Assembly: GCA_950295325.1 (NCBI GenBank)
Contig: OX485803.1
Location: forward strand, 53,893,554 to 53,957,553
From: Polytrichum commune
Lineage: Eukaryota; Streptophyta; Polytrichopsida; Polytrichales; Polytrichaceae
Reading direction: 5' to 3'
Length of the DNA stretch: 64,000 nucleotides
The notes under the pieces were generated by a model. That model did not search any database. It saw nothing but the letters and a program-made list of their open reading frames with translations, and was not told where the DNA came from. Position 1 is the first letter of the stretch. Each line of letters opens with the position of its first letter. Below, piece after piece: positions 1,111 through 61,327 of this stretch. Position numbers and translations under genes: made by a program.

Positions 1111-1296
1111 TGGGATAGAAAACTAATGATTTGTGTTAGGATACAGTTGAGGTATGTATTTTTAAGACCATATACATCATATGGTGCCCCGACTACTCAA
1201 GGGTATCATGGGGTATTTCAAAATATCATGGGTTCCCGGTTTAGGGTTAGGGCTTAGGGTTTGAGGCTTCTATATATTCGCTTTGAAGCTTTTGTG

Positions 1297-1884
1297 CCCG
1301 GGTACGCAACTCCCGTATTATATGGTCCTGATTATAATAACTTATAATGCGTTTTAGTCCAATATTGAGTGATACAATTTGTTTTAATGTAGGAAACCCT
1401 TGTAGCCCTTCTAACAAGGAATCCAAAAATGTAATTATATATAGGAAATGAATATATTTTGAAGCATATAATTGCATTAAAAACCTAATTATATGATTTT
1501 TTAATACAGGTACCATAGGTCAAACTACCCAACTTTTTGGACTTTTTAATAAAATTTTAACATTGTGAATGAATTATAATTTTAATGGGAGGCAACTATT
1601 CGTGGCTTATAATTTTAATGGGAGGCTTAATAAATATGCAACCCAACTTTTTTTTCATCTCATTTATTTAATTTGGTCTTCACCCAACTTTTTTTTCATC
1701 TCATTTTATTTAATTTGGTCTTTACCCAACTTTTTTTTCATCTCATTTTATTTAATTTGGTCTTCACCCAACTTTTTGATCATTTTTATTTGATATAATT
1801 TGATATAATTTTTACAAAAGCCGTCCTTTAAGCCGTTTTTAATACGATGCCCCCTGCGTATAATATGGGAGTTGCGTACCCAGG
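1297..1884 (+). repeat. Dispersed repeat family A, copy 2 with terminal inverted repeats
   Basis: The left end reads CCCGGGTACGCAACTCCC and the right end is its near-complement (GGGAGTTGCGTACCCAGG), so the family has terminal inverted repeats of about 25 bp. No matching target duplication was found, which suggests age. The body contains the uninterrupted version of the sequence that flanks the 105-914 element, and a three-copy tandem repeat at 1641-1775. Confidence 0.75.
1641..1775 (+). repeat. Tandem repeat, about 41-42 bp x 3
   Basis: Units start at 1641, 1682 and 1724, each beginning ACCCAACTTTTTTTTCATCT and ending near TTTAATTTGGTCTT. A fourth partial unit begins near 1766. The short open frame across it is only a by-product of the repeat. 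Confidence 0.9.
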
Positions 1885-4800
1885 TGTAGGGTTTTATTTA
1901 AAGTGTCACTAACACTCAAATACTTCCGTTACATAAATATCCAAAATATTGACTGTTACTATAACAAGAATTTAATATTGGACATAATTTATTCTAGAAA
2001 ACTATTTCAATAAATAAATAAGAAGATACATTCACACTATTATTGTCAATAACTAGTCAACCATTATAATGGTCCATTATTATCCCCACCGCATGTGTCA
2101 GTTTATGAAATTGACTTTATAACAATAACTTGGAACCGCAAGTCAACATAATAAGTCACAATGCTCAAAAGCTCACACTAACGTGGCGGTGTTTCGCATG
2201 TGAGGGGTCCCGCCTCCCCTTCTTTGTGGGTGCGTCATCCTGGGTTTTTAATTCATTTGGCATTGGCCAGGTTTGGCGTTCTGTCTCAAACAATTTTTTT
2301 TTAAAAGCTCACACTACCGAACCTAACTAGTGTATTTGGTTCACCCCTAATTAAAAATTGCCCATGTCAAATGGGAAGCTTGGATCATAACATATTATAA
2401 TAGAATATACAAGATATGTCACATGTGGCTTTATTTTGGACATTTCCTCCAATTCCACACAAAATATTGGCAGGTGGATTGGATCAAGAATTATCTCATC
2501 TAGTAATTAGCATCAACAATGCGATATGGGTGTGAAACATGAAGACATATATCTCAAGTTTCAAAATGAAAGTTACGATGTAAAAATTATGAGAAACAAT
2601 CTAAGGAGGATTGAATTTCTCTTTAAGTGATCACATAGCACATAAAAACTCCCAATGTTCTCATTAAATTGTTTATTTTGAGGACATGCTTGAGGGCGGG
2701 TGCACCTTTCATCAAAACCAAAAATCACATGAGTCTACAACATAATTTGAAAATCCCCTATATACAAGTTTGTTTTTGTAAGATTAAGCAATACACATAC
2801 ATTTTCAATGATAAACTCACAAGTGACAATATGTACACATAAAAATTCAAGTATAGTCATTGACATAAGTGTACAAATATATTTTTAAATAATAGTCAAC
2901 TCCTATCATATGTATCATGCAAAACCCTGGCATTCATCAATAAAGTCATTGCCCGGGGGGGTGCACTCCATTGTCAAGTTGAACACTACGTGCAAATAAA
3001 AAAACAAGATCTACTTTTTACATAAAGCGTCACCAAAATGGGTCAAAACTTTATCAAATTTTTTTCATGAGTAGATATACACGGTACTTATTACCTGGTA
3101 CAAAATAATAACCAAATTTGATGATTTGTTTTTTTATAAAACATACCATTTCCAACTAAATTTGAACGACACAAAATTGAACTAAAAATTTTACTAAAAA
3201 AATGAAGATGACAAAAAAATTCAAAATTATAAAAAAAAAATATTATCAATGGTTATGTATATGTAGGAAAATAATCATAATTTTCGAAATTATCTATGGC
3301 ATATAATATAGGGTAACAAACTTTTATCGCACATGGTTATGAAATATAAGGGGGTGTGATCGCCCCGAGAATCGTTGAAGACTTTTCATCCCCCGGACAT
3401 AATTTGTAAGTATTTAAATATGAAATAATAATAATTATTATTATTATTATTTCTAAGTCTACCATCAAATGATTAGTAAGATTGTATGTCCACATAACAT
3501 TAAGTAGCAAGCCTGGAATGACCTTCTCAAAAGAGCATCAAACTGGCATGTGCTGTTTTGATGCTCTTTCAAGAGCAAAAGTAGCGCTACTTTTGAGTTT
3601 AACTTAGGCTATTTTTAATTTATTTGAGTATTTACTTTCAATGCTTAAAACTAATTATGTGACAAAACTAATTCCAAGTGGTGGCAAAGGTTCTAATCTA
3701 GGCTAAATTACGATCTAAACAAATCTAAATAGCTATAAAAGCAACGGGAAAAGTTGGTGAGGTCAAAAAGGTAGTTGCACTTTTCAAAAAAGTCTTCGGA
3801 CACCCACATTGGAAACCTTTTTGAAGTTTTAAAAATAAAATAAAATTGATTATCCATTCATTCACCCTTGCTTTGCAAGCTTTTCCCTTCTTTTTGAGGT
3901 AACTTAAGATTGCGGGACCGGTACTCAAAGTCTACTCTTCTAGCATTGCTACCTAATGTTATGCACTTGTTGGTGGTTCCTTTTTTATACAAGTATAAGC
4001 CAATTTTCACGTTTGATGAATGATCCATCAAGTTAATTGGATCCCTATACTCCACCCAACGATTACCAAACTTTCTAGTTATTTTGCAAGGTCTATTACC
4101 CGCTGCGTGGGAGGGGGGGGGGACTTAGAAAATTTTAGCTGGAATGGTGCAACCAAAGATATGGTTTAGCTTATTATTTGTACCAAAAAACTTGAATTTT
4201 TTAAGAGGTGACATGTGATGGATTAAATATGGCATACTGGATTGTAATTGATATAAGGTCATTTATAACATATTAAAAAATAATTTTAAATACAATTTGC
4301 CATGTGGGATGAATTATTTTCATGTTGATAAAGGAGCCTTTGTGTGTTGTTTGTGGCATTGAGTGTGCAATGGCAACATTTCTAAAACCTAAGTCATTCA
4401 AGTTTATAATTTTTGGTCGTCAATACAAAAGCAACTACCATGTGGAACTCAATGTTTCCTAGTGCCATTCATTAATAACTTAGTCTTGGTTTTGGCACTC
4501 AAACTAGTAGAAATATCTTTGTCATTAATCTTTGGATTTCACTTTTTTTAATTTACTTCAAATTTTTTAATAAATTAAGGGGTTGAAAATAACCCCCCTT
4601 CATATTTTGCAAGTAATTACATGGACCCTTAAAACACCACAAATAGGATAATAAGGTAATTGAATGGTCCATTTTAGATCATTTGGGTCATCAAAATGCC
4701 CCTACAATAATATTCCTCAGTAGCATGTGATATACGACCTCCCCAAGGAGTCACTCCCCACCCCTCGTGGTCTAGTGACACTACCATACCGATACATATG

Positions 4801-6566
4801 CTGTATATTTTCAAAAGCCCTCCACACATGCATGTACATATATCAACTATGATTTATGATATTCTATAGCATATGACAGTATATACAGTACATAATATGG
4901 CAAAGTTCAAAACACTACCCCTTTTATGCACTCATGTACAGCTCCACGTGTTTAGAATGGCGCAACCCCGAAGAGGACACGGTCGAATAAACTTGTAACA
5001 CGTCGTGTCTTTTTAAAGCCCATTCCCTATTACTTATTTACAAGTCTTGTCATGTATACCACTCAAGAACAAGTGCTCAATTGAGGAGAGTGATACATAA
5101 CGCTCACAAACGATTTACGATCTTGAGTTAGCTAATTGGCTACCAATGCATCATTGAGTCACGACTCATGACTCACGACAATGATCACCAAAACTTTCCA
5201 ATGGGTTTCTAGTTTTAAAAAATGGATTTTCCCGAATTCCACCAAGCTGTCAAATTGGGATTCGACCGCTCAAAGTAGATTCCAAATGGAGTCTGATACA
5301 CAGAGCCATGGCCGCTCTTTGCCACCGCCATTTGTTTGTGACATCACGATTTTTTGAAGTGCTGCCTAGCTGGCCTTTGAGCAACACCAAAGCTTTTGCA
5401 ATACTGAAACATAATATACCTAATACATGGAAATGCATCATCATGTCTTTTTGTGGTGTTATTTAGGTGCTATTACATGTCTCGAGGGTTGGAAAATCAC
5501 ATGTTATTTGGGTGCTATTGTATTTTGTTTTGTTGGGGTGCATGAACATATTGCGCATTGCCACGTGTTGGGAGACGAAGTGCTTTGAATACGATCGAGG
5601 CCACAGCTAAAGCTAAAGCCTCGTGAGTCATGACGGCTTCATGCAACTCCTCATCCAAACCCGCAAGATTCCTCAAGGAAACTATGGAGGAAGGTGAAGC
5701 TTGTTGCTTCGCATGCTCAAATTGCATGTTGCGAAAGTCGGAGCATTTTACGCTAGTCACAGGTAGATATGGTTCGAGTTATTACTTACACATTACTACA
5801 CCGGTTTACAATTATGAGTGTGGGTCGAAAGGTAGCGTGTGTAGAAACTACCTTGGTGGCGTGGCCCACGATAGTTTATGTGTGTGTTGAGAATTAGGGG
5901 GGCTTATAAAATTGGTATAATAAAATGATCAAAATATAACATGACAAAGTATTTACAAAATAGTGAAATTGTATTATTGTGATGATGTGAATAATTCAGT
6001 ATTGTTTTTCTATTTAGGAAATATATGGAAATATTTTTAGCCCACCCTTTTGAGTTCTTGAAAAACACAAGAATTCCATGTTCCAGATTTTGAGCATATG
6101 ATACTATGAGATCTAAAATGGCGTGGGTCAAGAAAAGTTATATTAATCGAAATTATCGTGGTATGACAATTATAGTGGGCCATAGTAAAGGGTGTAAAGG
6201 GAGTAATTGCTACTCATTATTCAATCATGTACAAACTATGTATGATTTGAAGCCAACCTTCGGTTGTGTGGTTCCACCACGTGCACCCCATATAGCTCCC
6301 ATTTTGCTCCAAGTCATGCACTAGTAAGAAGCATGGTCACTTTGACATGGGCCCGTGACATAAAAAAAACTCTTGTGTCGGATTTTGAGCTCCGAGCTGG
6401 AGCCAACAAGGATGAATAGTATTTAGCGGTTTTTCTTCCATATGTGGGAGTTGTGTCACTTCTTTGTCATGCAAAAGGTCCGCGAAGGAATGTTTTCATC
6501 TTTGTTTAGTTTTTATATATCTTCTAAATCTAAATCTAGATGTGTGTCACCTTCGTAATTAACTAC
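1885..6566. other. Intergenic, repeat-derived, no gene seen
   Basis: Short open frames here show no recognisable domain and no splice-consistent extension. Two blocks, 2695-2925 and about 4755-4990, are homologous in the same order to 23725-23960 and about 24175-24370. They therefore belong to a longer dispersed repeat. In this copy about 1.8 kb separates the blocks; in the other copy only about 0.2 kb does. Confidence 0.7.
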
Positions 6567-6699
6567 TAAGAGCAAGCCCAGTCGTTCATGCATCTGCATT
6601 TGCATCCGGGAATGAAAAGTGGCCTCCGTCCAGGATGCAGATGTAGACCCAGACAAAACTATCATTCATCCTGCATTGTTTTTTTCACTAACTTTTGGA

Positions 6700-6975
6700 A
6701 TTCCTCTAAAATGTTCGGTAATTTTCTGAAGTCATGAACCTCGTTATTTCTCAAACACATATGATTCATCTGTAACTATTATTTTGACCGTGCACCCTAA
6801 ACCTCGATCGGTTATTTTTCAAATTCAACCAGATCATCTGTAACTATTATTTTGACTGTGCACCCTAAATCTCAACCGGTTATTTCTCAAACTCACCCAG
6901 ATCATCTGTAACTATTATTTTGATTGTGCACCCTAAACCTCAACCGGTTATTTCTCAAACTCAATCGCTTCATCA
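6700..6975 (-). repeat. hAT-MITE remnant with 68-bp tandem amplification
   Basis: About 6700-6770 matches, in reverse, the interior of the hAT-type MITE family found at 43706, 53259 and 59698 (shared words around TCGGTAATTT and ATTTCTCAAACTC). A 68-bp unit then repeats with starts at 6770, 6838 and 6906, each beginning CTGTAACTATTATTTTGA. The amplified unit seems to have grown from the MITE interior. Confidence 0.75.
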
Positions 6976-7329
6976 ATGAAGTTGTTTGTCTGTAGCTGAT
7001 AGCAAACTCCCTACATATCTCGACAAAATTTAGGGAGTTCTGCACTTCTTGTATTATTCTTCATCCAATTTTGACTTATAGCAGGGTGATATACTGGCCA
7101 CACCGGGGTGGCTATGACTAGCTAGCCGATGGTGGCGGCCTAGCCATTAGCTGGCTGGGCCACCCCGGTGTGGTACTTGGCCATCCACCTCTACAGCAGG
7201 TTTAGCTAGCAGGAATTGATGCCCCTGCCCCCTCCCCCCTCGTATTTGCCCCTACCAAACTAGATTACATTCTTTAAAAACATAAGTGGCGATATAAACG
7301 AATGGCAATATGTATATAAATGAATTAAT

Positions 7330-8120
7330 AAAAACATGATATTAAACATTATGGGACTTTAGGGTAATTTTGGGACTTTTGTGATGTAAGTGGGGAACTC
7401 ATTGGGAACCCATTGGGAGCTTATTGGGAACTCGCAAGGAACATGCTGGGTAGAACACATGCGACACAAATACTCTTTGATTCCAATGGTTGTTTGCTCG
7501 GTGCATTTTTGTTAGGTGATAGGGCGGTCGGTCGCAAATCCAAATGAAGTATTTTTTGTTCATACTCGCAATATTGCTTTACGTGCACATTGCGACCATT
7601 GACATACCTTCATGTGTGGTGTACACACAACCTTAATGTAAGGCTTTTCAAAGATGTGTCATGCATATGTCTCCATCTGTGCAGTGTAATGTTGTACTTT
7701 GCCACCTAATAATGAATATTATCAATATTGTATGTAAGCGGTGTACATGATGCATGTTATGGAGGCAGGCATGGATATAAGTATTACCCAATCCATACAT
7801 TGTTCCCATATCCATGACTCACCTTGTGCAAGGAATCCTCCAAGTCGTTCCCATGTACCCAAGCACGGTCCCAACAACAAGTTCCTCCCCACGTGTTGTT
7901 GTTCCCAATGAAGTTCCCACACATGTTCCCATGTTCCCAAATGAGTTCCCACGCACGCATTCATGTTCCCAAACAAGTTCCCATACACACTCCCATGTTC
8001 CCAAACAAGTTCCCTTTCATGTTCCCCTAAACGTTCCCATGTTCCCTTTGGGCCAAAGTTTACCTATTTTGCAATTTTGGGACTCCCAAAAGTCCCAAAA
8101 TGTTTAATATAGTGTCTAAA
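7330..8120. repeat. Inverted-repeat block with GTTCCC minisatellite
   Basis: The left flank near 7338 (ATATTAAACATTATGGGACT) is complementary to the right flank near 8085-8115, so this is probably an element nested in the PIF transposon. Between 7840 and 8050 the motif GTTCCC recurs many times at about 10-25 bp spacing. GGGAAC words occur in the opposite sense near 7395-7440. Several overlapping frames stay open here only because the repeat lacks stops. Confidence 0.6.
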
Positions 8121-8124
8121 TGAA

Positions 8125-8475
8125 CATGAAAATGAGTATAAATCTCTATATTCTTGATATTTTTGAAAACATATATTTATGGAAAAAAAATTTATAAGAT
8201 AAAACCAACCCCGACTTACCAACTAAAACTACTCCCTATGTTGCCCAAAAAAATGAATATCCATACATATCTATATAATATCATATTATAAAAAAATCAA
8301 GAATTTTTCTAAAATGAGTATATATAAATATATTCTTAATATTTATCTCTCATTTATTTATGAAAAAAATGGTATATAAGATAAGACCAACCCCATCTTA
8401 CCAACTAGAACTACCCACCTATTTTGTCCAAAAAAAAAGAATATATATATATTCAACATCTACAAATCTAATCGT
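8125..8475 (+). repeat. Direct tandem duplication, about 180 bp x 2
   Basis: Two AT-rich units, about 8129-8305 and about 8310-8470, share the order AAAATGAGTATA, TATATTCTT, TTATAAGATAA/TATAAGATAAGA, ACCAACCCC, TTACCAACTA and CCAAAAAAA. They are diverged. No coding content. Confidence 0.7.
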
Positions 8476-8529
8476 TTGTCTCATTTGTTTTTACATTCTC
8501 TAACCAATACTAAAATAATGCATTTCTAT

Positions 8530-9590
8530 TCAATGTGCCTGCACGTTGTAACACCGCCTCTGATAATTGTCTTGTTTGGATAGGAAGTTGCACATCATTG
8601 TCATTTGTTATGTCGCCAATGTTGTTGATTACCGGATTTCCTTGTCTTCTATCATTATGCAATTTGCAAAAATTGTGTAACACACAACATGCAACTGTAA
8701 TTGTTCATGCATGTTCAACAACACAATTTAATGCCTTTAGTATTGTTCATCGCTTTTTTAAAATTTCAAATGTATTTTTTATTTTAAGCCTCCCACATTG
8801 TATACACTCATCAAAATCATCTTGATACCCCCCTATTTGACCTCCGAGCATTGTAAGGTTTTAGGTATTGTTGTAGTAGAGGATATGTGGAGTTTCCAAC
8901 AATATGTGGCTTCACTTGTCTTCCTTCGATCAACATTCTCGATTCTTGTAATATTTCAGAGTCCATAAGTTTCTTGTAAAAGGAAGATTTCGTCAAATGT
9001 GTTGCGTCATGAGTGCAACCAAGTGCAAGCACATACACATTTAAGAAATTTTTATCTTGATCGCAAATCCCTTGTAACAATACCGTATGCGCATCATGTT
9101 GATACTAATAATCAGTAGGTTTATATACACGTTTGGGTTTGTTTATGAACTTGATATGGCTACAATCTATAGCACCACGCATTTGGAGTTTGGTGAGCCT
9201 AAAAACACCCTGTATTATTTGTTATAATTTTGCTTCACTCGGAATATTAATGTATCTAGAATACAATTTGTCTTTGTTGGCCAATGCCTTACACACCAAC
9301 CTTGTATATTTGAAAACGGATGCTCTTCTCACTCCAAACTCATTCCCAACATTACGATCGCTCCAACATAATGCTAGCTTTTTGAGTACAAGTACTACTA
9401 CTTTTTCTACAGACAATGTTGATTTATAATTCGTATCTCTATGCTCTACATATGATTTCAATACATCACACAAATTTATAAATGTTGTATATGTCATGCA
9501 AAAATCAACATACCACTAATTGTCGCAAAGAGCAACATCTTGCCTATACACCCTTTGATACATCACATTCCATCTATGAATAGACCTAGG
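8530..9590 (-). pseudogene. PIF/Harbinger transposase (HARBI1-like), decayed
   Basis: Reading the minus strand downwards, the frame shows a HARBI1-like N-terminal region with an LSVEKVVVLVLKKLA segment and FGVRRASVFKYTRLVCKAL (a helix-turn-helix-like stretch). GAIDCSHIKF follows near 9150-9180 and carries the first catalytic Asp. LGCTHDATHL near 9000-9035 carries the second. The C-terminal end has GRLKIKNTFEIL and ACCVLHNFCKLHN near 8660-8790. The glutamate expected before the GRLK segment is not at its usual place. In-frame stops occur near 9107, 8813 and at two or more points further downstream, so this is a pseudogene. In PIF/Harbinger elements this enzyme cuts and joins the transposon ends together with the ORF1 protein, which lies divergently just to the right. 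Confidence 0.85.
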
Positions 9591-9614
9591 AAAAATCCAT
9601 CAGCATCTATTCGG

Positions 9615-10209
9615 CCACATGGATCCCTGGAGGCGTGAATACTGGGAAACCATTCAATATGCCAAGCCAACGCAGACACCAATTACAATCGAGATGAATT
9701 CTCTAGCATGATTCGATGAAGAGATTGAGGAGTTGGAAGAGACAACACCTACTGGGGTAAATGATCCTCCAACAAGTGCTTCTCCAAGTATGACTAGACC
9801 GTCCACGGCTCCTACGCAAGATGAACTTGTGAGTGGTCAACGAGTTGGGGAGAAAAAAAGGAGGATTGATACTTAATCCTTATACATGGCAAACGCACTT
9901 ACAAACTTTGGTTTATTGTATGTAGCAAAAGAAGATGCCAAACTAGAAACTCAAATACAAGTATGTCTGAAAATCATTGAAATGAATGTTCTCGCCAAGG
10001 AAAGGGTGGTACAAGCACGAATCGAGGCGAAGGAGAGGGCGTTACAAACACGAAATGAGGTGGATGAGAGGAATAAAGAAGCACAAATTGAGGCAAATGA
10101 GAGCAATAAACAAGCACGAATTGAGGCGGATGAGAGGATGAACCAAGCACAAATCGAGGCTAAGGATAAGATGGATAAGATGGATAAGATGCCTAACTTA
10201 TTGACATAA
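9615..10209 (+). pseudogene. PIF/Harbinger ORF1-type accessory protein, decayed
   Basis: A plus-strand frame begins near HMDPWRREYWETIQYAK. It continues through an acidic and Thr/Ser/Pro-rich linker (EEIEELEE, SPSMTRPSTAP, SGQRVGEKKRR) into a long Glu/Ala/Arg-rich coiled coil made of repeated QARIEA/ERNK units, and stops at 10209. Two in-frame stops interrupt it (near 9708 and 9873). The C-terminal part from 9886 is an open 107-codon frame. Position and polarity relative to the transposase match the second ORF of PIF/Harbinger elements, which helps the transposase bind DNA. The Myb-like DNA-binding part is not clearly visible, so the family assignment rests mainly on context. Confidence 0.65.
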
Positions 10210-11359
10210 TCATTTAGGAAAGGTATTCTAAATTAGTGTGCCATTAGTTCGGTAATTTTTTGTATACATTAGTTATAGGCACGAGGATGTTCGAATTGTA
10301 CCTTGTTTTTTGGCTTAATAAGATATTATTTCTATTACTTTTTATTTTAATAAATGCTTACTTTCAATATTCTATAACTATATCTTTAAATTCTAAACTA
10401 TGTGTCTATCTAATATGTCATTAATATCTATTTGTATCTAATATCTATCTATATCTAGGTAATATCATATTATATTTATTTATTAAATTGAGGAACTCTT
10501 TTTAAAATATTAAAATATACATTAAAATTTAAAATATAAAAACAAATAAAAAAATTGCTTGGCCAACCTTGTTACCAGTTGCCGGGGCAGCCCACCAACA
10601 TGCCCGACTTGAGGCAGCGGGCAGGCCCCCTTGCTAGCTGGGTGCAAAGGTTGGGGCTTGTAGCTAGCCAACCTAAGCACCCAACCTGGCCCTGGCGCTA
10701 GCAACCTGGCTAGCGGCCAGCCTTTTAGGGGCCCCTCAGACGGGGCAAGCTGACTCGCTGGGCTAGCCACCGCCTAGGTGTGGCATATGTATGAGTGGGC
10801 CACTTCCTTGCATCCACATCTGCATTGCAGATGTAAAACTGCAGATGGAGATGCAAGGTGAGTGGCCTTGCCCTAAGGTGGGAGAAAGGCAATTACCACA
10901 TACAAGTGTCTTTCATTCATCCAACATAGAAGCACTAAAATAGTAATACTAAATATTAAATAATAATAATAATAGACAATAGATAGTTAACAGTAAATAA
11001 TAAATAAATAAATAATAGGTAGAAAATAGTAAAAACTAAATAATAAATAGTAGACAATAAACAGTAAATAATGGACATTCCATCTAAATATGATATCTAA
11101 ATATTTGAAATTACGCAATGCTATATTTATTTACTATACATCTCATATATGACTTACAGGTGTCACTTTGGTTGTTTGGACATTATAGAACATTAACAAC
11201 TTTACTTGATAAAAAACACATTAATAGTAAAATGGTAGAGCATTGTGTAATCCCAAATAGTAACTTACACTAATTATCATATTTAGTATAGACAATAGAC
11301 AGTAAAAAGTAAACAGTCCACAATAGCCTTCTCACATAGAAAAGTAGGGAGCACTACAA

Positions 11360-11545
11360 ATTTTACATGTGCAGTGCAATGAGTTAGTGGCTAAGACCTC
11401 TAAGTGGGAGCCCTGAGGTTCAAAGTTCAAGTCCCTTGAACTTTGTCCTTGGCCTAGCCTTGTAGGTGGTCATGCATTGATAGTAGGTGGTCATATACCG
11501 AAGGTATAATAGAAGGGGATCTACCACCTATTATTTTAAATGAAA
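11360..11545 (+). mobile_element. Candidate tRNA-derived SINE
   Basis: About 11372-11440 contains an A-box-like stretch (TTAGTGGCTAAGACC) followed about 35 bp later by a B-box-like stretch (AAGTTCAAGTCCC), the two parts of an internal RNA polymerase III promoter. It ends in an AT-rich tail near 11535. No cloverleaf could be folded by eye and no clear target duplication was found, so it is a SINE candidate, not a tRNA gene. Confidence 0.4.
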
Positions 11546-13439
11546 ATTTCATAGAATTATCCCTGAAATTGACCACCAAATTTATCCATGATAAACAAAA
11601 TTACTATATGGTAAAAATCTACACATGCGTATACCATGACATGATTTTGACATCCTGGTTATTTGAAAATAAAACTGGTCCAAGATGACACCATCTCCAC
11701 AGTGGTTGCGGCCTCTACGACATGTGTGGTGGTTATTCAAAAGTATCAATTCATTGTCATTTTGGTGTGGGAAAGGACCCTGCTTCCTAGTAGTGATGGC
11801 GGCCTTGTATTTGTTAGACGATGGAACAAAATTGTATCATTATTTCCAAAACAAAACAGACAAAACCATCACCCTTTTGTTTTGTAGTTCTTTACCGTGT
11901 ACCTTTGGCGGGTTGCTCGTATCTCTCTGCCCCAAGTCCCGGTGACCTTTTGTATTTATTGGCAAGGAAATAAAGGTGTTTCCTTTGTCTAAAAATATGT
12001 ATATTTATGAGAAAAAAAGAGGAACAAATCAACCTATGCATCATGCAAGCCTAGGCTCAAGGGTTGAATAAGTACTAGAAACCTATGCATGCAACCTTAT
12101 AATTTATGTTGATGTTAAATAAAGTATTGCCGATATTATGCATTCAAGTGCAAAGTCCATTGTACAGATGGAGCAATTTGGCTGGAAGAGAATTATCATA
12201 TTTCATAGCAAGTGATAGAGTACCCTACTAGAATGGACTCTGGAGGTCGTCTCTGTAATCATATTTTGAAAATCTGTTTACAATGCTTTTGAATTTTTAC
12301 ATCGCTTTTGGTGTAGAGCATTGCCTATTAACATCATCAAAGAATTTTGGAGAGCCTTCATACACTCGTGATCATGTGGGAATCCAATTGATAGGTCTAC
12401 AAAATGAAATTAGTCTTTGTGAGGGCTTTCACATGATTGCTTGTTGCAAAGTAGTTGACATGTCATCATGATCACCTTGATTCCCCCACCAATGACCAAA
12501 ATTTTAGAAATCTTATGATGAGTCACCTAGGGATACGTAAACTTTAGAATGAGTGACTATTGGTCGAATGTTAGTCAATTTTCTACTAGGTGGCATGGGT
12601 TTATGTGGAATCATCCTCCGCATGTCCTTCAAATGCAAAAATATGTGGTCAGTTTTCCAAATGTCATCAAATTCTTCATAAGTTGAAAAATTGAACAACC
12701 TAACAATTCTGGCACATTGTGGGTGCCACATCATCCACATAAAATGTCCCTCTGTAGACAACCTAAAATTAAGGTATTCCCACTTTATTGGTTGATATTT
12801 TTTAAGGAAGATCAATCCGTTGGCATTTGAAGTTTTGGATTCATTGCGTACCTAGTACTCATGATTTAGAAATACACTCTCTACAAAGCACTCAATTAGA
12901 CCAAAATCTCACCCGAGAATGAATTTTTTACTTGTTTGAATGCTAGTACACAAGGTTATGAATTCTTTCAAACTCTAAATGATGCTTTCCCGATGTTTCT
13001 TGATTTGTAATGAATTACCTACCTAGTATGATACACATTGCACGCATTGAGATAAACCTTATTCACAAATATTGGTGTGTTTGACAACTGGTGTTGCTGA
13101 CATGGTGATGCAACTGGATTAGAATGTGGAAAAACAAACATTGTCATAAGCTCACTTGCACTTGATTGCTAGTTGGATAGGGGTTGACACGTCATCACCA
13201 AAGATTTCCGTGAAATAGATATGTTGTCTAGTAGTATGTGATAAGAAAATTGAGATGGATACGCAAACTTAAGTTTGACTAATATTATTCACAAGTAATA
13301 GGTTGGTTTCCCAGTCACTTCTACAAAAATGGAGTATTTGTTTTAGGTGCAGAATATCAATAAATTCTTGAATGTCATCAAGTTGGGTTGCATATTTATT
13401 ATTAGAAAAAAATCATAATATATATAAGGAATTAAAACA

Positions 13440-13795
13440 CTTATTTTTCTAAGCTTGTAGAGCATCTAATTTTAAAGGATCCACACAAGTAGTTGCCTCC
13501 AATTAAAATTAAATGTCATGGGATTTTTTTTATTTATAGTTAAAAAATCTTAAGATTTACTAAAATGCCCAAAAATTTGGGTATTAAAAAACTCATATAA
13601 ATAGGTTTTCATTGCAATTATATGCTTCAAGAAATATTCATTTCCTATATATAATTACACTTTTGGATTCCTTGTTAGAAGAGCTACAAGAGTTTCCTAC
13701 ATTAAAACAAATTATATCACTCAAGATTGGACTTAAATGCAATATAAGTGATTATAATTAGGGCTATATAATATGGGAGTTGCGTACCCAGGAGT
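13440..13795 (-). repeat. Dispersed repeat family A, copy 3 (reverse)
   Basis: The sequence is the reverse complement of about 1040-1510 plus the CCCGGGTACGC terminus: it ends with GGGAGTTGCGTACCCAGG at about 13779-13796. The far terminus is missing or too diverged to see. Confidence 0.75.
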
Positions 13796-14939
13796 GCCAA
13801 ATTTTGCAATCCAAATAACAATTGTATGAATTTACATACAAGCCTCTCATAATTTGGTGAGCATTATAAAGGTGGGTGGCCTTGTTGTGGGCACTTTTAA
13901 CTTGACCATTGGATTGGATTGGGGGTTGTCTCCATCCTATTAGCGACTATGAATGACAAAAGATTTTCATTTCAAATTTTAGAATGGGGGTTGAAACGTA
14001 AAATATTCAACAAGGTTAAAGGGAGGAGTCTCTTTCTCTATAAGTGATCACATTGGCCCTCACAATTGTGTGACTACTAAATACAAAATGGTTTACATAT
14101 TTTGAGCACATCATGGTCCAATCTAGCTCATTGCACAACACGTGTCTTTTTGGTGTCTTGACATACATAAATAGTAACCTTGCCACATATCACTCAAAGG
14201 AGTCCGTTTAAGAAAAGTGATCATTCAAGGTCCAAAATATACAAATCTTACTTTGTCACATCAACGTAACTCGTGCTAAAACCCAACACCTTAAAAAATC
14301 TTGCACAATAAATGCAAGTTGACATTGAGAATGTTCACCATCTTAACATCATGCTTCCGTGTTGACTTTCAATCATCTACCAGTACAACTTGGCATACCA
14401 AATTCAAATAAGGCAAACTTTGATGCGTTGGAATTTGATTTCAGTTGTTCACGAGAAACGTCAAGAACTCCTTCCAACCGAATATCAGAAACTTAGATAC
14501 GTACACTCAGAGCCTGAAGTGAAGGTCTTAGCACCAGAAAAGGTGGCTCTTTACTTGTCTGCTCCTGACGCAGTTGCCATGAAGTGCCAATTCAATATAG
14601 CTGGCGTGTAAGTAAGCGAATCTGCTACTGTACGACATTGATGGGGCATGTGTTTGGCACACGCTTCCGGTCATGCCGGTCATGAAGGAGAAAAAAAGAA
14701 CATGCTAAAATGCCAAAATTTGTCACAAAAGTAGCTCATACATGAGAAGAGTAGGGAATCAGAGCCACAATTTGTACAGGGTGGAGGTATTAAAAATATT
14801 CAGAATATTCACATTGGTGCCACCTTGGAACTTAGCTTTTTGAATCATGGCAGGTCAAGTTTGTGTCGGAGGGAGGGAGGGAGCGGGGGAGTGAGGACCT
14901 GATTGCGGGAGCTTTCAAGTTACGTGGTGAGCTTTTCCC

Positions 14940-15011
14940 AGTGGGTATAAAGACAGATTCAGCCCTGGCCTATTTCTCAAACTAGCCACTTGAAGCTGTT
15001 CCTAGTCACGG
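14940..15011 (+). promoter_or_regulatory. Candidate core promoter and 5' UTR exon of the multicopper oxidase
   Basis: TATAAA lies at 14946-14951, about a kilobase before the first coding ATG. A strong splice donor (GGTAAGATT) follows at 15011-15019. Acceptors TTTCAG (ending 15863) and TTCTCCAG (ending 15901) lie just upstream of the ATG. This suggests a short untranslated first exon and a 5' UTR intron of roughly 850-890 bp. There is no transcript evidence. Confidence 0.4.
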
Positions 15012-15968
15012 GTAAGATTAGCGACATTTACTCTGTCTTGACCAGCCTCTCCTATTGGCCAGGATTTCCTTGAGTAGCGTTGGATGCATTATTTGTAGAT
15101 CTTCTGATTCCTGAAGGTCGTCAACTGAAATAGTAAGGTTTGTAGTTGCTGGCGGCCTTCATATGTCTTCTACGTCTGCATGAATCCATGGATGAAGTGA
15201 ACATATACACTGTTTTTCTTGTGCAGCTTGCGGCGTTGCCTGACATATTGATTGCCAGTTCTTACGTTGACATGCATGACTAGTCGGGGGGGGGAAAAAA
15301 GGTTTAGCGGTAAGTTAGCTGTTTCTAGTCTATGTTTAAGTGTTATATTCCATATTGCAACTTTATATAACAAAAACCATAGTCGTCCAAGGAGGTAGTC
15401 TTTGACATTATTGCTCAGTTTCCATGCAGTTATGGCCATGTTTACATGACAAATTATGAAGTTATAATGGATAAATCAGCTGCAGGGTATAAATACATTA
15501 CACTTCCTGAGAATGATATGTGGCCCCCGTATTGCATCTTCAGGGGCTAAATCTCGAAATGGCTGCTAAATCCTGTTATAGAAAATCAAGAGTGTTTACC
15601 AAATATGCGCCTACAAGTCCAAATATAATTTCTTTGCTCTATGTCACTTGTTAAATTTCAGAAGGTGCAGGCATTCTCGGTATAATCTCAATTTAGGTGG
15701 AGGGCCACATGGTGGTGATTAAGCCAGATGCAATTTTATGAAAGATAACAAGCTATGGGAAGACCCATAAACTTCAAAATATGCGTCATGCATGTAGTAG
15801 TGATTTCACTTGCCAGTTCTGGACGAATGGGCACCCTCACAAAGTTCTCAATTACTGTTTCAGGTGGACTGATCAACTCCAAAAGTCAACATTTTCTCCA
15901 GAATAAGCGGCTTTCAACGAAGTTCAAACCACTTATTATTTGTTGGTAATATCTCAAGTTATAGCACA

Positions 15969-18900
15969 ATGGAAGGAGGTCATGGAATTTGCATCCTGTT
16001 CTCTTCCACAACTAGCCGGCTGGGTGCGCTTTGTTTCCATCTCTTTGCAACAATATGGCTGCTTCATGTGGTAGCCTCATCTGCACAAGACTCTCTCTGT
16101 CAAAACATGACAGCGTCCCCAACGCTGACTCCGTTCGTTGATGCACTGCCGATTCCCCCTTCCATTGCGGTGAACAATCTAACAACACTCACCATCAGCT
16201 CATACAAGATAACCCAGGTGACAATTCCAACTTCAAGCGACCCGCAAGTTGACATTAGAATGAATGCCTGCCTTCAGTCCATCATCAACAATAAACTACA
16301 TCGTCATTCCTTGATCAGCTGCCGCACAGATCATGAATTGCAAGCATCGACTCATGCAGAGACTTTCCGCATGAACGGATCCAGTTGAACAATACGCCAC
16401 ATTATAAACACCTTCATGAATATTCAGACTTTTTAAAGGAGGTTAATTATCCAAGTTCACGTGGATCATGTAATAAGCTCCTAAACATTTAGTGTACATG
16501 GAGAGGAAATAATTTGTGGCGACTACAAAATTTGCAGAGATGAATTGATATTAATGTCTGGTAGTTCACGGATTTTGTACTGAGCTCCTAGACATTTTTA
16601 ATAATGGAGGCAATAGATCGTCAGGATGCATTTACTGATACATGTATTGATGGAGGTTAAGTATGCAACCTCACGGATGCACTGATCAGCTCCTAGAAAG
16701 TTTAGTACATGGAGGTGATTAACACAGATGGACCCTGCACTGATGCGCAGAACCATTCCGATGTACTAATTGTGGCGACTGCAGAAACTCCACAAAGATC
16801 TGATGCTAATGCATGTCTTCATGAGAATTCTGCTAATTCACGCATACTATACTCAGCTCCTTGACATTCATTTTTGCACATCGACTCGAAGATGATCGAT
16901 TGACAGGTTTCATATACTGACAGACCCTGCTGCAAGTCTGATCATTCGTAGTAGCTTCATCTTGTCTGCCATAAAATTGTCGAATACGCAGAAACCCGAC
17001 AGGGATCTAACACCGAAGAATAGTTTGATTGGTGTCTGCTAATAATTCTTGGATGTTGTAATACTGAGCTCCTCCATTTTCATTTGCGCACATTGATTCG
17101 ACGATTATCGATCGACAGGTTTCCTATACTGAATATAGACCCTGCTGCAAGTCTGATCTTTTGTAGTAGCTTCTTCTGATGCAACAAAATTCTTGAATTC
17201 GCAGAAATAGCAGAGATCTAACACCGTAGCTTAGTTTGATGAGAGTCTACTAATTCACGGATGTTGTTTTCCTAAGCTTCTCCATTTTCACTTTTGCACA
17301 TTGACCCGGCGATTATCACTCAACAGGTTTCATACAGTATGGTTCTATAGACCCTGCTGCAAGTCTAGTGATCAATCGTACTAACTTCTTCTGATGCAAA
17401 AAATTTGTGGGAATGATTTGCAGAAACTTCACAGGGATCTGACCCCGACGACGCTATATGCATACGGGGTGAACAGCAGCAGCGCCATGTTCCCCGGCCC
17501 AACCCTGGAGGCAACGCGAGGGAACATGGCCCAAATCTACTGGGCGAACAACATCCCTGACGCAGAACACTTTCTTCCTGTTGACAGAACGATTCACTGG
17601 GCGAATCCCCCCCATGGTGGAGTGCCAAACGTGGTCCACTTACACGGCGCCGAGACGCAGAGCACCCACGATGGCCACCCAGACGCATGGTTTACCCCGC
17701 CAACGTTTGGTGACTTCGGACCAACGTACACAACACAGAATTACTCGTACCCGAACCAGCAGAAACCTACCATGCTCTGGTATCACGACCACGTGGTGGG
17801 TATCACCCGGTTGAATGTGCTGATGGGGCTGACGGGACTGTACATGCTTCGATCGACTGAGGAGCAGAATTTGACGAGGATCTTCACACCGGGAGTGTTC
17901 GAGATCCCGTTCGTGATCAAGGACTTGCAGTTCTGGCCCAATGGATCGATCAACTATCCCAACGTTGGCGACAGCCCTGGGGTGCACCCCCAGTGGTGCC
18001 CGGAGTACTTCGGAGACACTATCCTGGTAAATGGGATAGTGTGGCCGTATCTCAACGTCTCCCGTCGCATTTACAGGTTGGGTAATTTTTATATTTATCT
18101 TTAATTTTCCCAAATACATTTCATATCGATCAGTCAAATTGGGCATACTCTTCGAGAGTGATGTGCATTAGACTGAAATTTGAATACCTGATGATCTTCA
18201 GCAAGCACTACCTACTACTCCCTTCGGGTTATGAGATGCATGTCCGGGTTGAAGGTATTGCCAAATGAATAATCAGGAGGTAACGGTATTGGTATCTTTA
18301 CCCCTCCTTTTTCAATCTATCTTGAAGATCAGGGTGAGCCCTCACGATCATTTATTACATTGCCAAGAAACTTAGAAGTTGGCCACCTGAATGGAGAGCT
18401 GGGGGACACCTCTCATCCGGGGTGTGCATGGTGGAACCACAAAATCCCCAAGAAGGGTAACTTGAAAACGTCTAAGCATGGATTGACTATGTATTTCTTT
18501 CTCAACAATTTCCTAACCGATATTGGATGCTGCAATGAGTATACACAACATCATCATGCTATAGACGTTGTTCATATGATCAAAAGGGTCATAGCAGTAA
18601 ACAGTTACGGGGGAATTAGCAAAGAACATGTTGCACCTGCTCCTTCTGCTGATGACCAAAGAAACATGCATCAGGAACATTTTGACACTAATTTATCACA
18701 CTTGAGTGTAGCATTAAATTGGTCATGGTAATGCATTCATTAATTTTACTTCCATACATGATTCCAATTTCCATAGCATGATGGATAATTACTTAGCTAA
18801 GCCAAAAACTCTATCCTCGCATGCATCAACAGGTTTCGAATCCTGAATGGAGCCAACGCACGTTTCTTCAATCTCACCTTCAGCAACCCCTCCTTGAGGT

Positions 18901-21193
18901 TTGTCAAGATCGGCACCGACGGGGGTTTCCTGCCGGGATGGCCGCAGGTTGTCTCCTCGTTGCTTATCGCTCCCGCTGAGCGCATCGACTGTCTGGTCGA
19001 CTTCAGCAACTTGACAGTTGGCACCGTAGTGTATGTGAACAACTCCGCCGTGGCACCCTTCCCCAGTGGGGATCCCACTCTAAACCCCCCGCAGACATCC
19101 TGGGTATCGGAGATCCGCGTGGTAGCTAACACTTCCGAGACGTCCCCAACGTACAAGGATGTGCTAACCGCCCTGCGACAAGCCACCGCCAATGACAGCA
19201 ACCCCTTCGTAAATTACAGCAACGCGCTTCACAGGTAAATCATTTTAGTGTTATGACTGCTTGAGAGAATGCCCAGAGAATGTTGAGCGAATAATATAGA
19301 ACTCTTTATTGTGAATGCATAAATGAAATACGGCCAATCTACAACAGGTAAGTGAAAAAAGATCTCTGTCTACGCTACAACCTCTATAGACAACCCACTG
19401 TCTACGATTAGAAAGACAGCACGAAAGGTGCGAGACGAAGCCTTATGTGAACTCTCCGACTAGAAGGTTCTGTGGATCAACAGAGTTCAGTCGAATGCTA
19501 ACACATTCTTGCAACAACAGGGAACTCACTATGGTGGAGTATGATGACGCCAATGGCAACCCCACTGAGATCACATTGGGCAACAGGACCTGGACCGATA
19601 CCGTGACAGAGACTCCGACCCTGGGAGCGGTGGAGGTCTGGGAGATGATCAACCTCACCCCCGATGCGCATCCTATCCACGTCCACCTCATCCAATTCCA
19701 AGTGCTCAATCAGCAGCCCATCAACACCAGCTTGTACGTTAATATTGCAGCAAGCTAATTGCTTCAACTCACTCTTGAACTTTGCAATTCCTGTTGTGTT
19801 ATGCATTTTGTGAGTTAGTGCATCAGGCATACTAGTTTTGTTATTCTAGGTACTTACCTGCAATTTGTGGTGACATGGTGCATATATCATGATGCGGTCA
19901 ATTTGCATGACATCCTGAATCCTGATAAATCTGCGTGTGAGGAGTTTTGTAATGTGCATACATTTCTCAATGTATGATTTTCCTACGTTGGAGGTTTTCT
20001 AATTCGATTATGTGAAACTCGCACATTTTGTAATTAACCTGGTGCGATTTTCTGTGAGTCAGTGCATCATCGTGTGAGAATTTTAATGCTAATTTTGCAA
20101 TTTTTCTAGTTGCCTGAATTTGTGGTGACTCGGTGCAGTATGTGGTCACTTTATATGTCCTGAACCCGGGATGGCAGCTATATATTTGTAGCACTCGCAG
20201 GGGTCCTCGCCTTTAGAACTTGGGTTGGAGCTTCTAAACCATTTCTAAGAAGCATAATTGGGAGAGACTTTTATATTATAAGCATTTCGAAGACTAAAAT
20301 TTCAAAAAATATTCTAGAATTGAAATTTAACACCCAGTGGATCTGGATGGTGACCCCTAATTTAGAAAAATTGCTTGTAAAAATGACATTTGAAAATGCA
20401 AACCTTCTGTTCAGACACAAATCACACCAATGAACTCTCCCAATTCCCTCTTTCCAAGCATGTTTCTCCTCCTTGTGGAAGTAAAAATCACCAAACCATT
20501 AGAAGTATTAGAAAATATTTAGGAACAACTGATTTAAAAGGGAGAATTGCCACCCCGGGATCCTGAATCTGCATGTGAGTTTTGTGGTGTACGAGCATTT
20601 CATACATATGTGTGAGTTAATCGTAAGTTGCAGGTTTGCGTCAACTAATCATCTGAGATCTGCAGATTTATAAACCTGCAATTTTCTGTCTTGAGCGAGT
20701 CGTATCATGATGTGCAAGTTTTGGTGCAATTTATGTAATTAACCTGAAGTTGTGACAGCTCGGTGCATCATGTGGTCACCTTGCATGTCCTGATGAATTG
20801 GCATATGAATTTGTGATGTGCATACATGCTTTACTGAAGCAACTGTAGAATTTCTAGCATATATACTGATGATGACGTGGTGGCCGGGCGAGAATTTTGT
20901 GCAGAATTACTCCAGTAACCAGTACCTTACTATGCAATATAACAATACCTTACGGGCAGCCCGGGACATGCTTCACGGGGCCACCCATTCCACCTGCAAT
21001 CTATCAAACAGGGTTGAAGGACACAGCGATCGTTTGGCCAGGAAATGTCACTCGCTACGGAATGCATTTTGTGGCCTCCTCCGGTGGCCCTTTCCCCTTC
21101 AACGCCACCGTCGGCCCCGGCTATGTGTGGCATTGCCATATCTTAGACCACGAGGACAACGACATGATGCGACCCTACAAACTTCTTAATTGA
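15969..21193 (+). CDS. Secreted multicopper oxidase, LPR / bilirubin-oxidase type (5 exons)
   Basis: The predicted exons are 15969-16247, 17424-18076, 18833-19234, 19521-19733 and 20905-21193. Joined, they give 1836 nt (611 aa) with no stop at any junction; an alternative exon-1 donor at 16218 also keeps frame. The N-terminus has a signal-peptide-like segment (about residues 18-40). The cupredoxin domains carry all copper sites: HLHG (H165, H167), WYHDH (H214, H216), HPIHVHL (H495, H498, H500) and HCHILDHEDNDM (H592, C593, H594, H598, axial M603). The DGGF and DHEDN signatures, the HRDL segment after exon 1 and the overall length match plant LPR1/LPR2 and bacterial CotA-type oxidases. Those oxidise metal ions or phenolics and reduce oxygen to water; LPR1 is a ferroxidase acting in root phosphate/iron sensing. 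Many N-x-S/T sites fit secretion. Intron 1 is a tandem array of decayed exon-2 acceptors and intron 4 holds a MITE. Substrate is inferred, not shown. Confidence 0.93.
16500..17423 (+). repeat. Intron-1 tandem array of decayed exon-2 acceptor units
   Basis: Four upstream units precede the real acceptor. Their GCAG acceptor-like sites end at about 16537, 16784, 16991 and 17204, against the true site at 17423, giving spacings of 247, 207, 213 and 219 bp. After the sites at 16784 and 16991 the sequence still encodes weak copies of the exon-2 start (KLHKDL and KPDRDL against the real KLHRDL). Each unit also repeats a GCTCCT motif, a GACAGGTTTC motif and GACCCTGCTGCAAGTCT. Confidence 0.8.
18360..18731 (+). 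other. Open frame inside intron 2 of the oxidase, unrecognised
   Basis: A 123-codon frame from ATG lies entirely within the 756-bp intron between exons 2 and 3. The peptide is His/Asn-rich with no domain recognised. It may be a fragment of an inserted element or a chance frame. It does not fit the oxidase fold and keeps no obvious splice link to the neighbouring exons. Confidence 0.3.
19855..20850 (+). repeat. Degenerate direct repeats in intron 4
   Basis: Three blocks, at about 19860-19975, 20113-20164 continuing at 20560-20620, and 20740-20830, share the order TGTGGTGAC, CGGTGCA, TGTGGTCAC, TGTCCTGA and GTGTGAG/GTGATGTGCATACAT. The middle block is split by the MITE at 20165-20559. Confidence 0.65.
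20165..20559. mobile_element. Short MITE in intron 4 of the oxidase, 395 bp
   Basis: The ends are CCCGGGATGGCAG on the left and CCCGGGGTGGCAA read inward from the right. The flanking 8-mers are GTCCTGAA (20157-20164) and ATCCTGAA (20560-20567), a 7/8 match of hAT-type length. It interrupts one unit of the intron's own repeats. There is no coding content. The TCCTGA word is already doubled in a sister unit, so the duplication is not fully certain. Confidence 0.6.
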
Positions 21194-24100
21194 TCATTAT
21201 GAATCATTTAGTCATAATTAATCACCGACGTGACCGATTATCAGCACCTTCCGATCGACTGATGTGATCGGCAGAGCACATTGAGTTGTTGCTTCTGAGC
21301 TTGTCAATCGGCTTTTCTAACTCCTACTACTCTATTACTTATACTGAATTCATGCCTTGTAGTGCATGCTCACTTGTTCCAGATGTTTACAATGATAAAC
21401 GTTCTAGCAGACTGCATGCAAAATGCTTGTAGGGTTAAGCTTTCAGTTGACCTAACATTCACTTTGAATCTCTAGATATGTAACTTGCTGCGTGCTCTTA
21501 CGCTTGTATATAAATAAATAAATAAATAAATAGCTCGCTTGTCATGACAGTACTGCATCCCTAATAATTTTTATCTACTATCAGGTGACTCTCCTCACGT
21601 GCAATTATTTTGACTAACTTTATGAAATTGTCGGTTGACTGGAGAGCACCGTGTTCTTCCATCAGAATCTTTCAAAGCCAAATTTCAGCTGCTAACTTAG
21701 TACTGGGTGACAGCAAAATATATTGTTGTGGAAAACACACAGAAACAGAAAGATAGCCTGCACCTGTCACTGCATTTCTACTGACTAGGGCCTGAATGCA
21801 GATACTGTCCTGATTTACATATACACATACTTTTGTTCAGATCAAACATCAATGTGATAAAATTTTCATTTCATCCGACTCTCATGTATTCTCCTTCTAC
21901 ATGTTGACACATACTGGACAGGATTTTATTATAGATTGAACTTTGTCCTGGACGGATTAGATAAATAGAGTGACTAGTGGCGGACACCATACCACTAAGA
22001 CCGACCTTTCCAAAAACACAGAATGATTGTCTAGCATTCATTCTAAGACATGTGATGATTTAAGTTTGATATGTAATTAAATATTTATGTATTTTTTTCT
22101 GGTGGATCGGATTCGATGATAAATTCCTTTATAACAATTCCTTGTAACAATAATATGTTAGCAGTTGAGGGCTGAAGGCTGTAATAACTGTATACAATGA
22201 AAATTCCTTGAAATGGTGTGTAGCTGTTAGTACTTTAATTGATGAGTCACTAAGATTAGCTTCAAAGACACTGAGTTAATGTAGCAATACACATTTGTGT
22301 TGATTTAACTTTAAGCTTAGCAGTTATAGGGGATAGGCTTTTAACATGATTAGATGTAAGGTATGCTTGTAAGCAGTGTCCAATATTGAAGTCTTCAACA
22401 CTTGTCAAATGCCATATTGATTATCAAAAAAGTTTTTTTTGGGGGGGGGGCACTTCACAAAAATGTGCTTTGCAAAGTTTCCACCCTTCACAGTGAAGGC
22501 CTCTCCAAAATCAGCCTGTCACAACAAACAAACGAACGAACAAACAAACCTATAAAATTAAATTAAAAAATTAAAAATTTGTAATTTGCAAATAGAAACA
22601 TAGCTGGACTCCAATCTTGGCACTCTGGCAGACACTTCCAAATTCCAATAAATCCTACACTTTCAACTCTACAACATCGACTCGGCATTGATTGCAACTT
22701 CGGCTTGGCAAGCATAGCTACATGTTAACATGGATTTTTCAAACTGAATTGGGTGAAAAGTGATCGCAAAAGTCCATTGAAACTTGAAACATTGGATGTG
22801 TTGATGTGAGTGTCATTATGCGGTCTTCCGATGGAAAATATGGAATGGGCTAGAATTTTTAACACTTAGAAATCAACCAAAAACTGGAGGGCTTTGCCTT
22901 TGGAGTTGGATGATGATTAAGTACATTATGTAGGGAATCTAAATAATTCTAGTGCATTATTATATTACATGAACTTCTTCAATAAAGTGAGACATCATAT
23001 TATTTTCATAATCAATACAAAACAGCCAATATCAAGTTTTTTAAATTGTGAAGTGTTGCAAAAAAGTTTGAAAGTTTGAGTGAAGTGTGATTATTTTGAA
23101 GCCCTTCACATTGAAATGCATGTGCACAGTTCAAACTTGAACACTGCTCATATGCAACTACTCCGGCCTCTCGCTTATGAAAAGCCGCCTTTATAATCAG
23201 GATACAAACTTTAAAAAGTACAACTTTATGGGTTGCACTCGGCGTTTCACCTCATTATAATTTTCTAATCAAAATACTCTCTACAATAATATGGCGAGGA
23301 GCCTTGCCATGCACTATATAGTACTTGGTGTCTACCTATCAAACTGTATTAGGAGCAAGCTGATACTTATTGGATACCTACTATAGTCAATGGTAGAGTG
23401 ACACATGTCCATTGTTATACGTAGTAGTCATGTCATGATAAAATGATCATTTATGGATGATAATATGCCTCCGCATATCCAATTAGGAATCGGTACACTA
23501 GCAGAATTGCTTGGTCTAACCACTATCTAGTCTAGTCTAGTCTTTTGTACACTAATATACTTCTACTCTTTCGTGCCTTGTAGCGCATGCTTAGTTGTTC
23601 CAAATGTTTTGATTTTTTTTTTTAGAGTGTTGAATGCTCTTAGAGTCTCGGTTGACCCTATGGGGTGGAACTCTTCATTGCAAACTTAAATGATGTGCAT
23701 GGGTCACTATGAAATTAAACCCCCCTACATACACTGGGGGGTGCACCTTACATTAAAAACCAAGAACCACGTGCATTCGCAACATACTCTAAAAACCCCC
23801 TACATACATATATTTTTCTAAAAACAAGCAATACACGTACAACTTCAATGATAAATATACAAGTGACAATATGTATAGATAAAAATTTACATTCGTATAT
23901 AGTCATTAACATAAATATACAATTATACTTTTTGAATAACAATCAACCCCTATCATAAGCATAATTACCCGCATCAACCATCCACATCCCCTTTGATCAG
24001 CTTCCACTAAGAAGCACAACATGTTCCTCTTGCAATCCTAAGCAACTAGTGGCATCGTTCTCAACTCAACGACCCCTTCCAAAACCCTAAAGCTACCTTC

Positions 24101-59932: not shown

Positions 59933-60047
59933 CTTTACTAAAGCTGTGTTGTGTGTGACCTCCCCGGTCAAAGCAAGCTCGTGCATTAACTTACATGTGT
60001 TTTATAAAGCCTAAATCCAATCAATCTGGGCCATGGACATATTTATA

Positions 60048-61322: not shown

Positions 61323-61327
61323 TTATA

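What the first reader, a model, noticed from the sequence alone, without database searches (positions are those of the whole stretch)
16500..17452. Intron of a multicopper oxidase built from tandem copies of its own downstream splice acceptor
Units of about 207-247 bp each end in a GCAG site followed by a decayed copy of the exon-2 start (KLHKDL and KPDRDL against the functional KLHRDL). This looks like repeated duplication of an intron-exon border, leaving decoy acceptors. Such arrays could shift splicing or be raw material for new exons.
Basis: partly seen in the sequence, partly recalled or inferred. Interest (0 to 1): 0.75.

Follow-up and report, generated by a model that had tools for sequence, protein, structure and literature searches.

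The report
Tandemly duplicated splice border in intron
One intron of a plant-type copper enzyme gene has grown by repeated copying of its own end together with the first few letters of the next coding piece, a real but decayed example of a kind of duplication already described in lancelets and potato.

Summary
Intron 1 (16218-17423, 1206 nt) of an LPR1/CotA-type multicopper oxidase gene holds a diverged tandem array. Three copies end in GCAG followed by a decayed copy of the exon-2 start. Acceptor spacings are 207, 213 and 219 nt; units are 72-81% identical. The likeness reaches 28 nt into exon 2, then stops. In register, the exon start scores 67 at the three sites against 35 for the best of 286 distant registers. 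Weaker copies reach back to about 16433. LHRDL is conserved to bacterial CotA, so the exon is the source. Four paralogues have the intron at the same place (477-691 nt) without an array. The decoys hit a stop after 36, 16 and 1 codons, and unit differences fall evenly over codon positions: non-coding decay. The kind is known: lancelet "mirage" repeats and a potato intron-exon-border duplication. Long-period arrays are also common in this genome. Whether the decoys are ever spliced needs RNA data. A new member of a known kind; modest interest.

The parts
15969..16217 (+). Exon 1 coding part (83 codons, phase 0; secretion-signal-like start by eye), ends ...SSYKITQ
   Evidence: Open frame MEGG...KITQ, 249 nt; matches exon 1 of the four paralogues
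16218..17423 (+). Intron 1, GT...AG, 1206 nt, phase 0
   Evidence: CAG|GTGACA ... TTTGCAG|AAACTT; same position in four paralogues
16433..16783 (+). Older, more decayed part of the array: cores near 16454, 16563 and 16671 (spacing about 108 nt) and a possible fourth border relic near 16525
   Evidence: Repeat D5, self-BLAST, shuffle test 0 of 200 for four pairs; the 16525 relic rests on one short match, TTGTGGCGACT, and is uncertain
16785..16991 (+). Unit A: decayed exon start (KLHKDL) after an AG ending at 16784, then intron-like sequence ending in GCAG at 16991; 207 nt
16992..17204 (+). Unit B: decayed exon start (KPDRDL), 213 nt, ends in GCAG at 17204
17205..17423 (+). Unit C: most decayed exon start (AAATAGCAGAGATCT), 219 nt, ends in the functional GCAG
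17424..17451 (+). Source segment: first 28 nt of exon 2 (KLHRDLTPT), the exonic part that was duplicated
   Evidence: Best-matching exon-2 28-mer at the three sites; likeness absent beyond 17451
17424..18076 (+). Exon 2 of the multicopper oxidase
   Evidence: Pfam PF07732 Cu-oxidase_3, E 1.1e-7; CotA spore coat protein A, E 9.4e-54
18077..18832 (+). Intron 2, 756 nt, absent from all four paralogues examined; ACAGGTT at both borders (side observation)

Best explanation
Intron 1 of this LPR1/CotA-type multicopper oxidase gene has lengthened by successive local tandem duplications (slippage or unequal exchange). The last, period about 212 nt, took the 3' end of the intron, its acceptor and the first 28 or so nt of exon 2. 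Each event left the furthest-downstream border as the working one and pushed an acceptor plus an exon stub into the intron, where it decays as intron sequence. Shown: the array, its register with the exon start, the polarity exon to intron, non-coding decay. Inferred: the mutational mechanism, that the last acceptor is the one used, and that splicing is not disturbed. It is a decayed 'mirage' array as described in lancelet genes, and by itself has no evident function.
For: Array and significance; exon start in register; LHRDL conserved to bacterial CotA and in four paralogues, so the exon is the source; intron at the same site in four paralogues, 477-691 nt, no comparable array; unit not found elsewhere in the genome, so not a dispersed repeat; mismatches flat over codon positions, 16/17/17, 15/22/19, 12/12/16, and stops in every unit; arrays of period 80 or more occur about once per 15 kb in 18 sampled pieces, so the mutational process is common here; same anatomy reported in lancelet globin BflGb6 with normal RT-PCR products.
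Against: No orthologue or second haplotype was available, so the duplications were not seen before and after. The exon stubs are short and alone not striking (42 of 1000 controls). All three acceptor distances are multiples of three (207, 213, 219), which a pure accident gives about once in 27 and a coding or splicing role could explain. The acceptor-side halves of the units are more alike (86.6-88.0%) than the exon-stub halves (74.6-78.7%), which could mean constraint; gaps in that alignment and small size make it weak.
Confidence: 0.88

Rival explanations
1. The decoy acceptors are used: some transcripts splice exon 1 to 16785, 16992 or 17205, giving truncated messages that lower the output of the enzyme (unproductive splicing), perhaps in a regulated way.
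For: GCAG is kept at all three decoys; their pyrimidine counts (8, 7, 9 of 17) overlap those of the real sites (8-12), though the four paralogue rows in that table were cut one base off; decoys have some yTNAy branch-like matches. All three are in frame with exon 2 and would give early stops.
Against: No RNA evidence. Units B and C read TAGTAGC where the functional unit reads TACTAAC (alignments), so the clearest branch-like site is lost there; but two of the real acceptors have no yTNAy match either, so the motif decides nothing. Authors of the lancelet cases report normal splicing.
Confidence: 0.07
2. The units were, or are, tandem coding exons or an in-frame coding repeat that has since been lost.
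For: Unit lengths 207, 213 and 219 are all multiples of three and unit A has one stop in 69 codons.
Against: Differences fall evenly over the three codon positions and several gap lengths are not multiples of three; unit B has 6 stops and C 3; stop numbers are not below shuffled expectation (200, 1768 and 682 of 2000 shuffles have as few or fewer). No paralogue has such an exon.
Confidence: 0.02
3. The unit is a transposable element or satellite that happens to sit beside the acceptor, and the exon likeness is chance.
For: The exon stub alone is not rare (42 of 1000); arrays are common in this genome.
Against: Exon start is the best of 616 exon-2 28-mers and only in register; the unit was found only at its own place (that search scores only best candidates and can miss copies).
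Confidence: 0.03

Closest known systems
'Mirage' minisatellites of lancelet (amphioxus) genes: Adh3, troponin C, globin BflGb6 and BflGb9, PGBD5 (PMC3087553, section 16 read; PMC3902484, one passage)
   Same: Tandem duplication of the 3' end of an intron together with the 5' part of the next exon; 150-160 bp units in BflGb6; AG signals kept in many units; gene otherwise normal
   Different: Here about 212 bp units, 72-81% identical (BflGb6 81-100%), so older and decayed; a plant-type gene; no haplotypes and no RT-PCR
Potato RdRp gene PGSC0003DMG402000361.L (PMC4974935, abstract and passages)
   Same: A plant gene in which a tandem duplication crosses the border of intron 1 and exon 2
   Different: In potato one duplication created a new intron from a cryptic donor and kept the upstream copy expressed; here the copies lie inside one intron, several rounds, no sign of a new intron between units
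Intron gain by tandem duplication of an AGGT-bearing exon piece (Rogers model; Gao and Lynch 2009; Zhuo 2007): known from passages in PMC3087553, PMC4974935 and PMC2891723; the two primary papers tried were not held
   Same: Same mutational process, internal tandem duplication including a splice site
   Different: No intron is gained at this place; the old intron grows
LPR1-type multicopper oxidases (PMC9168544, passages)
   Same: CotA-like gene with phase-0 intron in a spliceosomal genome; that paper proposes acquisition from soil bacteria and later gain of phase-0 introns
   Different: The paper's passages mention no repeat array; the acidic triad that defines LPR1-type was not checked here

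Membership tests
Mirage minisatellite (tandemly duplicated intron-exon border) | Tandem copies in an intron, adjoining a real splice border | tested here: met
   last unit ends at the functional acceptor
Mirage minisatellite (tandemly duplicated intron-exon border) | Each unit holds intron end plus exon start, in register | tested here: met
   Three of three main units; third copy weak (13 of 16 nt)
Mirage minisatellite (tandemly duplicated intron-exon border) | Copy number varies between haplotypes | not testable with these tools
   One assembly only
Mirage minisatellite (tandemly duplicated intron-exon border) | Regular splicing is not disturbed | not testable with these tools
   No RNA data
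Intron gain by tandem duplication | A new intron at a new position | tested here: not met
   Intron 1 lies at the same position in four of four paralogues
Dispersed repeat or transposable element | Copies elsewhere in the genome | tested here: not met
   Only the own locus found with 16781-17423 and 16218-16790; the search can miss weak copies
CotA/LPR1-like multicopper oxidase | Sequence relation to CotA over exon 2 | tested here: met
   E 9.4e-54 to spore coat protein A; PF07732
CotA/LPR1-like multicopper oxidase | LPR1-type acidic triad | not tested
   Named in PMC9168544; not checked in this gene

The most novel reading that the evidence does not exclude
A gene reported (for its family) to have come from bacteria and to have gained introns since is caught in the act: intron 1 grew by copying its own acceptor, three in-frame decoy acceptors are kept as a throttle that sends part of the message to decay, and the same gene copy has separately gained intron 2 at a CAG|GTT site.
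Probability: 0.06. Interest if true: 0.6.

Novelty: new member of a known kind. Interest (0 to 1): 0.3.

Why it matters
It is a clean, datable example, in a plant-type gene, of an intron lengthening by duplication of its own 3' border. The array gives a graded series of decaying acceptors beside a working one, which could be used to ask how the spliceosome picks the last of several similar sites. It does not change what is known about the process.

Tried and rejected
Rejected: dispersed repeat (own locus only); coding repeat; structured RNA of a known family (0 matches at 15900-21300). Led nowhere: promoter/terminator scan of intron 1, made for bacterial signals and not informative in a plant-type gene (2 promoter-like against 3.3 expected, 3 terminator-like against 0.8); branch-point and pyrimidine comparison, which does not separate decoys from real acceptors; alignment of intron 1 to the paralogues' introns, best match 13 nt at E 0.03. 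I first thought units B and C were closest on the acceptor side; the gapped alignment shows the three acceptor halves about equally alike, 86.6-88.0%, so I claim no order of duplications.

Slips, mended: one search used unit limits one base early; notes gave L001 intron 1 as 690 nt, which is 691; one search joined exons 2 and 3 one base off and was redone. In one search the four paralogue acceptor rows are cut one base late.

Literature: nine searches. The word 'mirage' with lancelet terms gave two papers, and no plant paper using the word was listed (one search demanded a narrow phrase). The library holds open-licence papers only, so I do not claim that no plant case has been named so.

Full report
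What is there. The window lies in a 407.8 Mb genome of 64 contigs, unnamed. The gene encodes a CotA-like multicopper oxidase: exon 2 hits Cu-oxidase_3 and spore coat protein A at E 9.4e-54. Because such genes with introns are reported from streptophytes (PMC9168544, passages) I take the host to be a land plant or relative; that is inference. Exon 1 ends ...KITQ at 16217, intron 1 runs 16218-17423, exon 2 starts KLHRDL at 17424. The same intron site, phase 0, occurs in the four paralogous loci that the exon-2 search found, one of them a neighbour about 5 kb before the window.

The array. Three units of 207, 213 and 219 nt (A 16785-16991, B 16992-17204, C 17205-17423) are 75.6% (A-B), 72.3% (A-C) and 80.6% (B-C) identical. 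Each begins with a decayed exon-2 start and ends in GCAG. Upstream, shorter-spaced cores near 16454, 16563 and 16671 belong to the same array; 16218-16432 shows no repeat. A border relic near 16525 is possible but rests on one short match.

Is the exon likeness real? The matches are 16 of 19, 18 of 21 and 13 of 16 nt. On its own the 28-nt exon start is not remarkable: 42 of 1000 random 28-mers match their own upstream stretch as well. But at the three sites the summed score is 67, against 35 for the best of 286 registers at least 38 nt away; of 616 exon-2 28-mers the first is the best, and the best of the 588 starting beyond the duplicated stretch is 50. The exon starts of all four paralogues also score highest in register. 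In paralogues the same test of exon start against own intron gives only 14-16, against 27 here. Likeness ends about 17451.

Direction. LHRDL lies at the start of the alignment to bacterial CotA and in all four paralogues (K-L/M-HRDL), so the exon is the older sequence and the intron copies are derived.

Age and constraint. The paralogues' introns cannot be aligned to this one (best 13 nt, E 0.03), whereas the units are 72-81% alike, so the array is younger than those gene duplications; absence of an array in the four paralogues (self-BLAST, only a 17-nt simple match in L002; TRF, 0 arrays in 29,557 bases) is what one expects. Differences are even over codon positions and units hold 1, 6 and 3 stops: no sign of coding. 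All three distances being multiples of three is a coincidence at about 1 in 27, unexplained. The acceptor-side halves are more alike than the exon-stub halves (86.6-88.0% against 74.6-78.7%), which may hint at constraint or at partial exchange between units, but the numbers are small and the alignment gapped.

How common. In 18 evenly spaced pieces (178,200 bases) TRF found 12 distinct arrays of period 80 or more and at least 1.9 copies (13 rows, two of them one array), about one per 15 kb; the 64 kb window has one, this one. Long-period tandem duplication is thus ordinary here; what is special is that this one straddles a splice border. I did not measure how often that happens genome-wide.

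Would it affect splicing? Not known. Splicing exon 1 to a decoy would end the protein 36, 16 or 1 codons later. Simple acceptor features do not tell decoys from real sites. B and C read TAGTAGC where the working unit reads TACTAAC. In lancelet cases of the same build the authors state that regular splicing is not disturbed (PMC3087553 section 16; PMC3902484 passage).

Known kind. Tandem duplications comprising an intron's 3' end and the next exon's 5' part are called 'mirages' in lancelets, and a potato gene shows a duplication across an intron 1-exon 2 border that made a new intron. This locus fits the first in anatomy; haplotype variation and splicing could not be tested.

Noticed in passing
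18077-18832: Intron 2 (756 nt) of this gene is absent from all four paralogues, where the coding sequence runs on unbroken. It sits at CAG|GTT and has ACAGGTT at both borders, as a duplicated target or proto-splice site would. It is likely a gain in this copy; searched with 18076-18832 the genome gave only one other partial match, 75% over about 106 nt on C2, and it has no likeness to the gene's other parts.
   Followed up: partly
L004 about 4499-4808 (C1:45353998-45354307): The paralogue L004 has its exon 2 interrupted by some 310 nt between ...ATSLW and YHDH..., ending in CAACAG|GTACC: perhaps another copy-specific intron.
   Followed up: no
L002 about 3670 (reverse-complemented locus): Paralogue L002 changes reading frame within exon 2 (two overlapping matches in different frames): pseudogene, sequencing error or small intron.
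   Followed up: no
60043-61328: A large inverted repeat: the stretch matches its own reverse complement at 95.6% over 1303 columns, with nearly identical open frames on the two strands.
   Followed up: no
6743-6964: Tandem array of a 68-nt unit, 3.3 copies, 88% matches.
   Followed up: no
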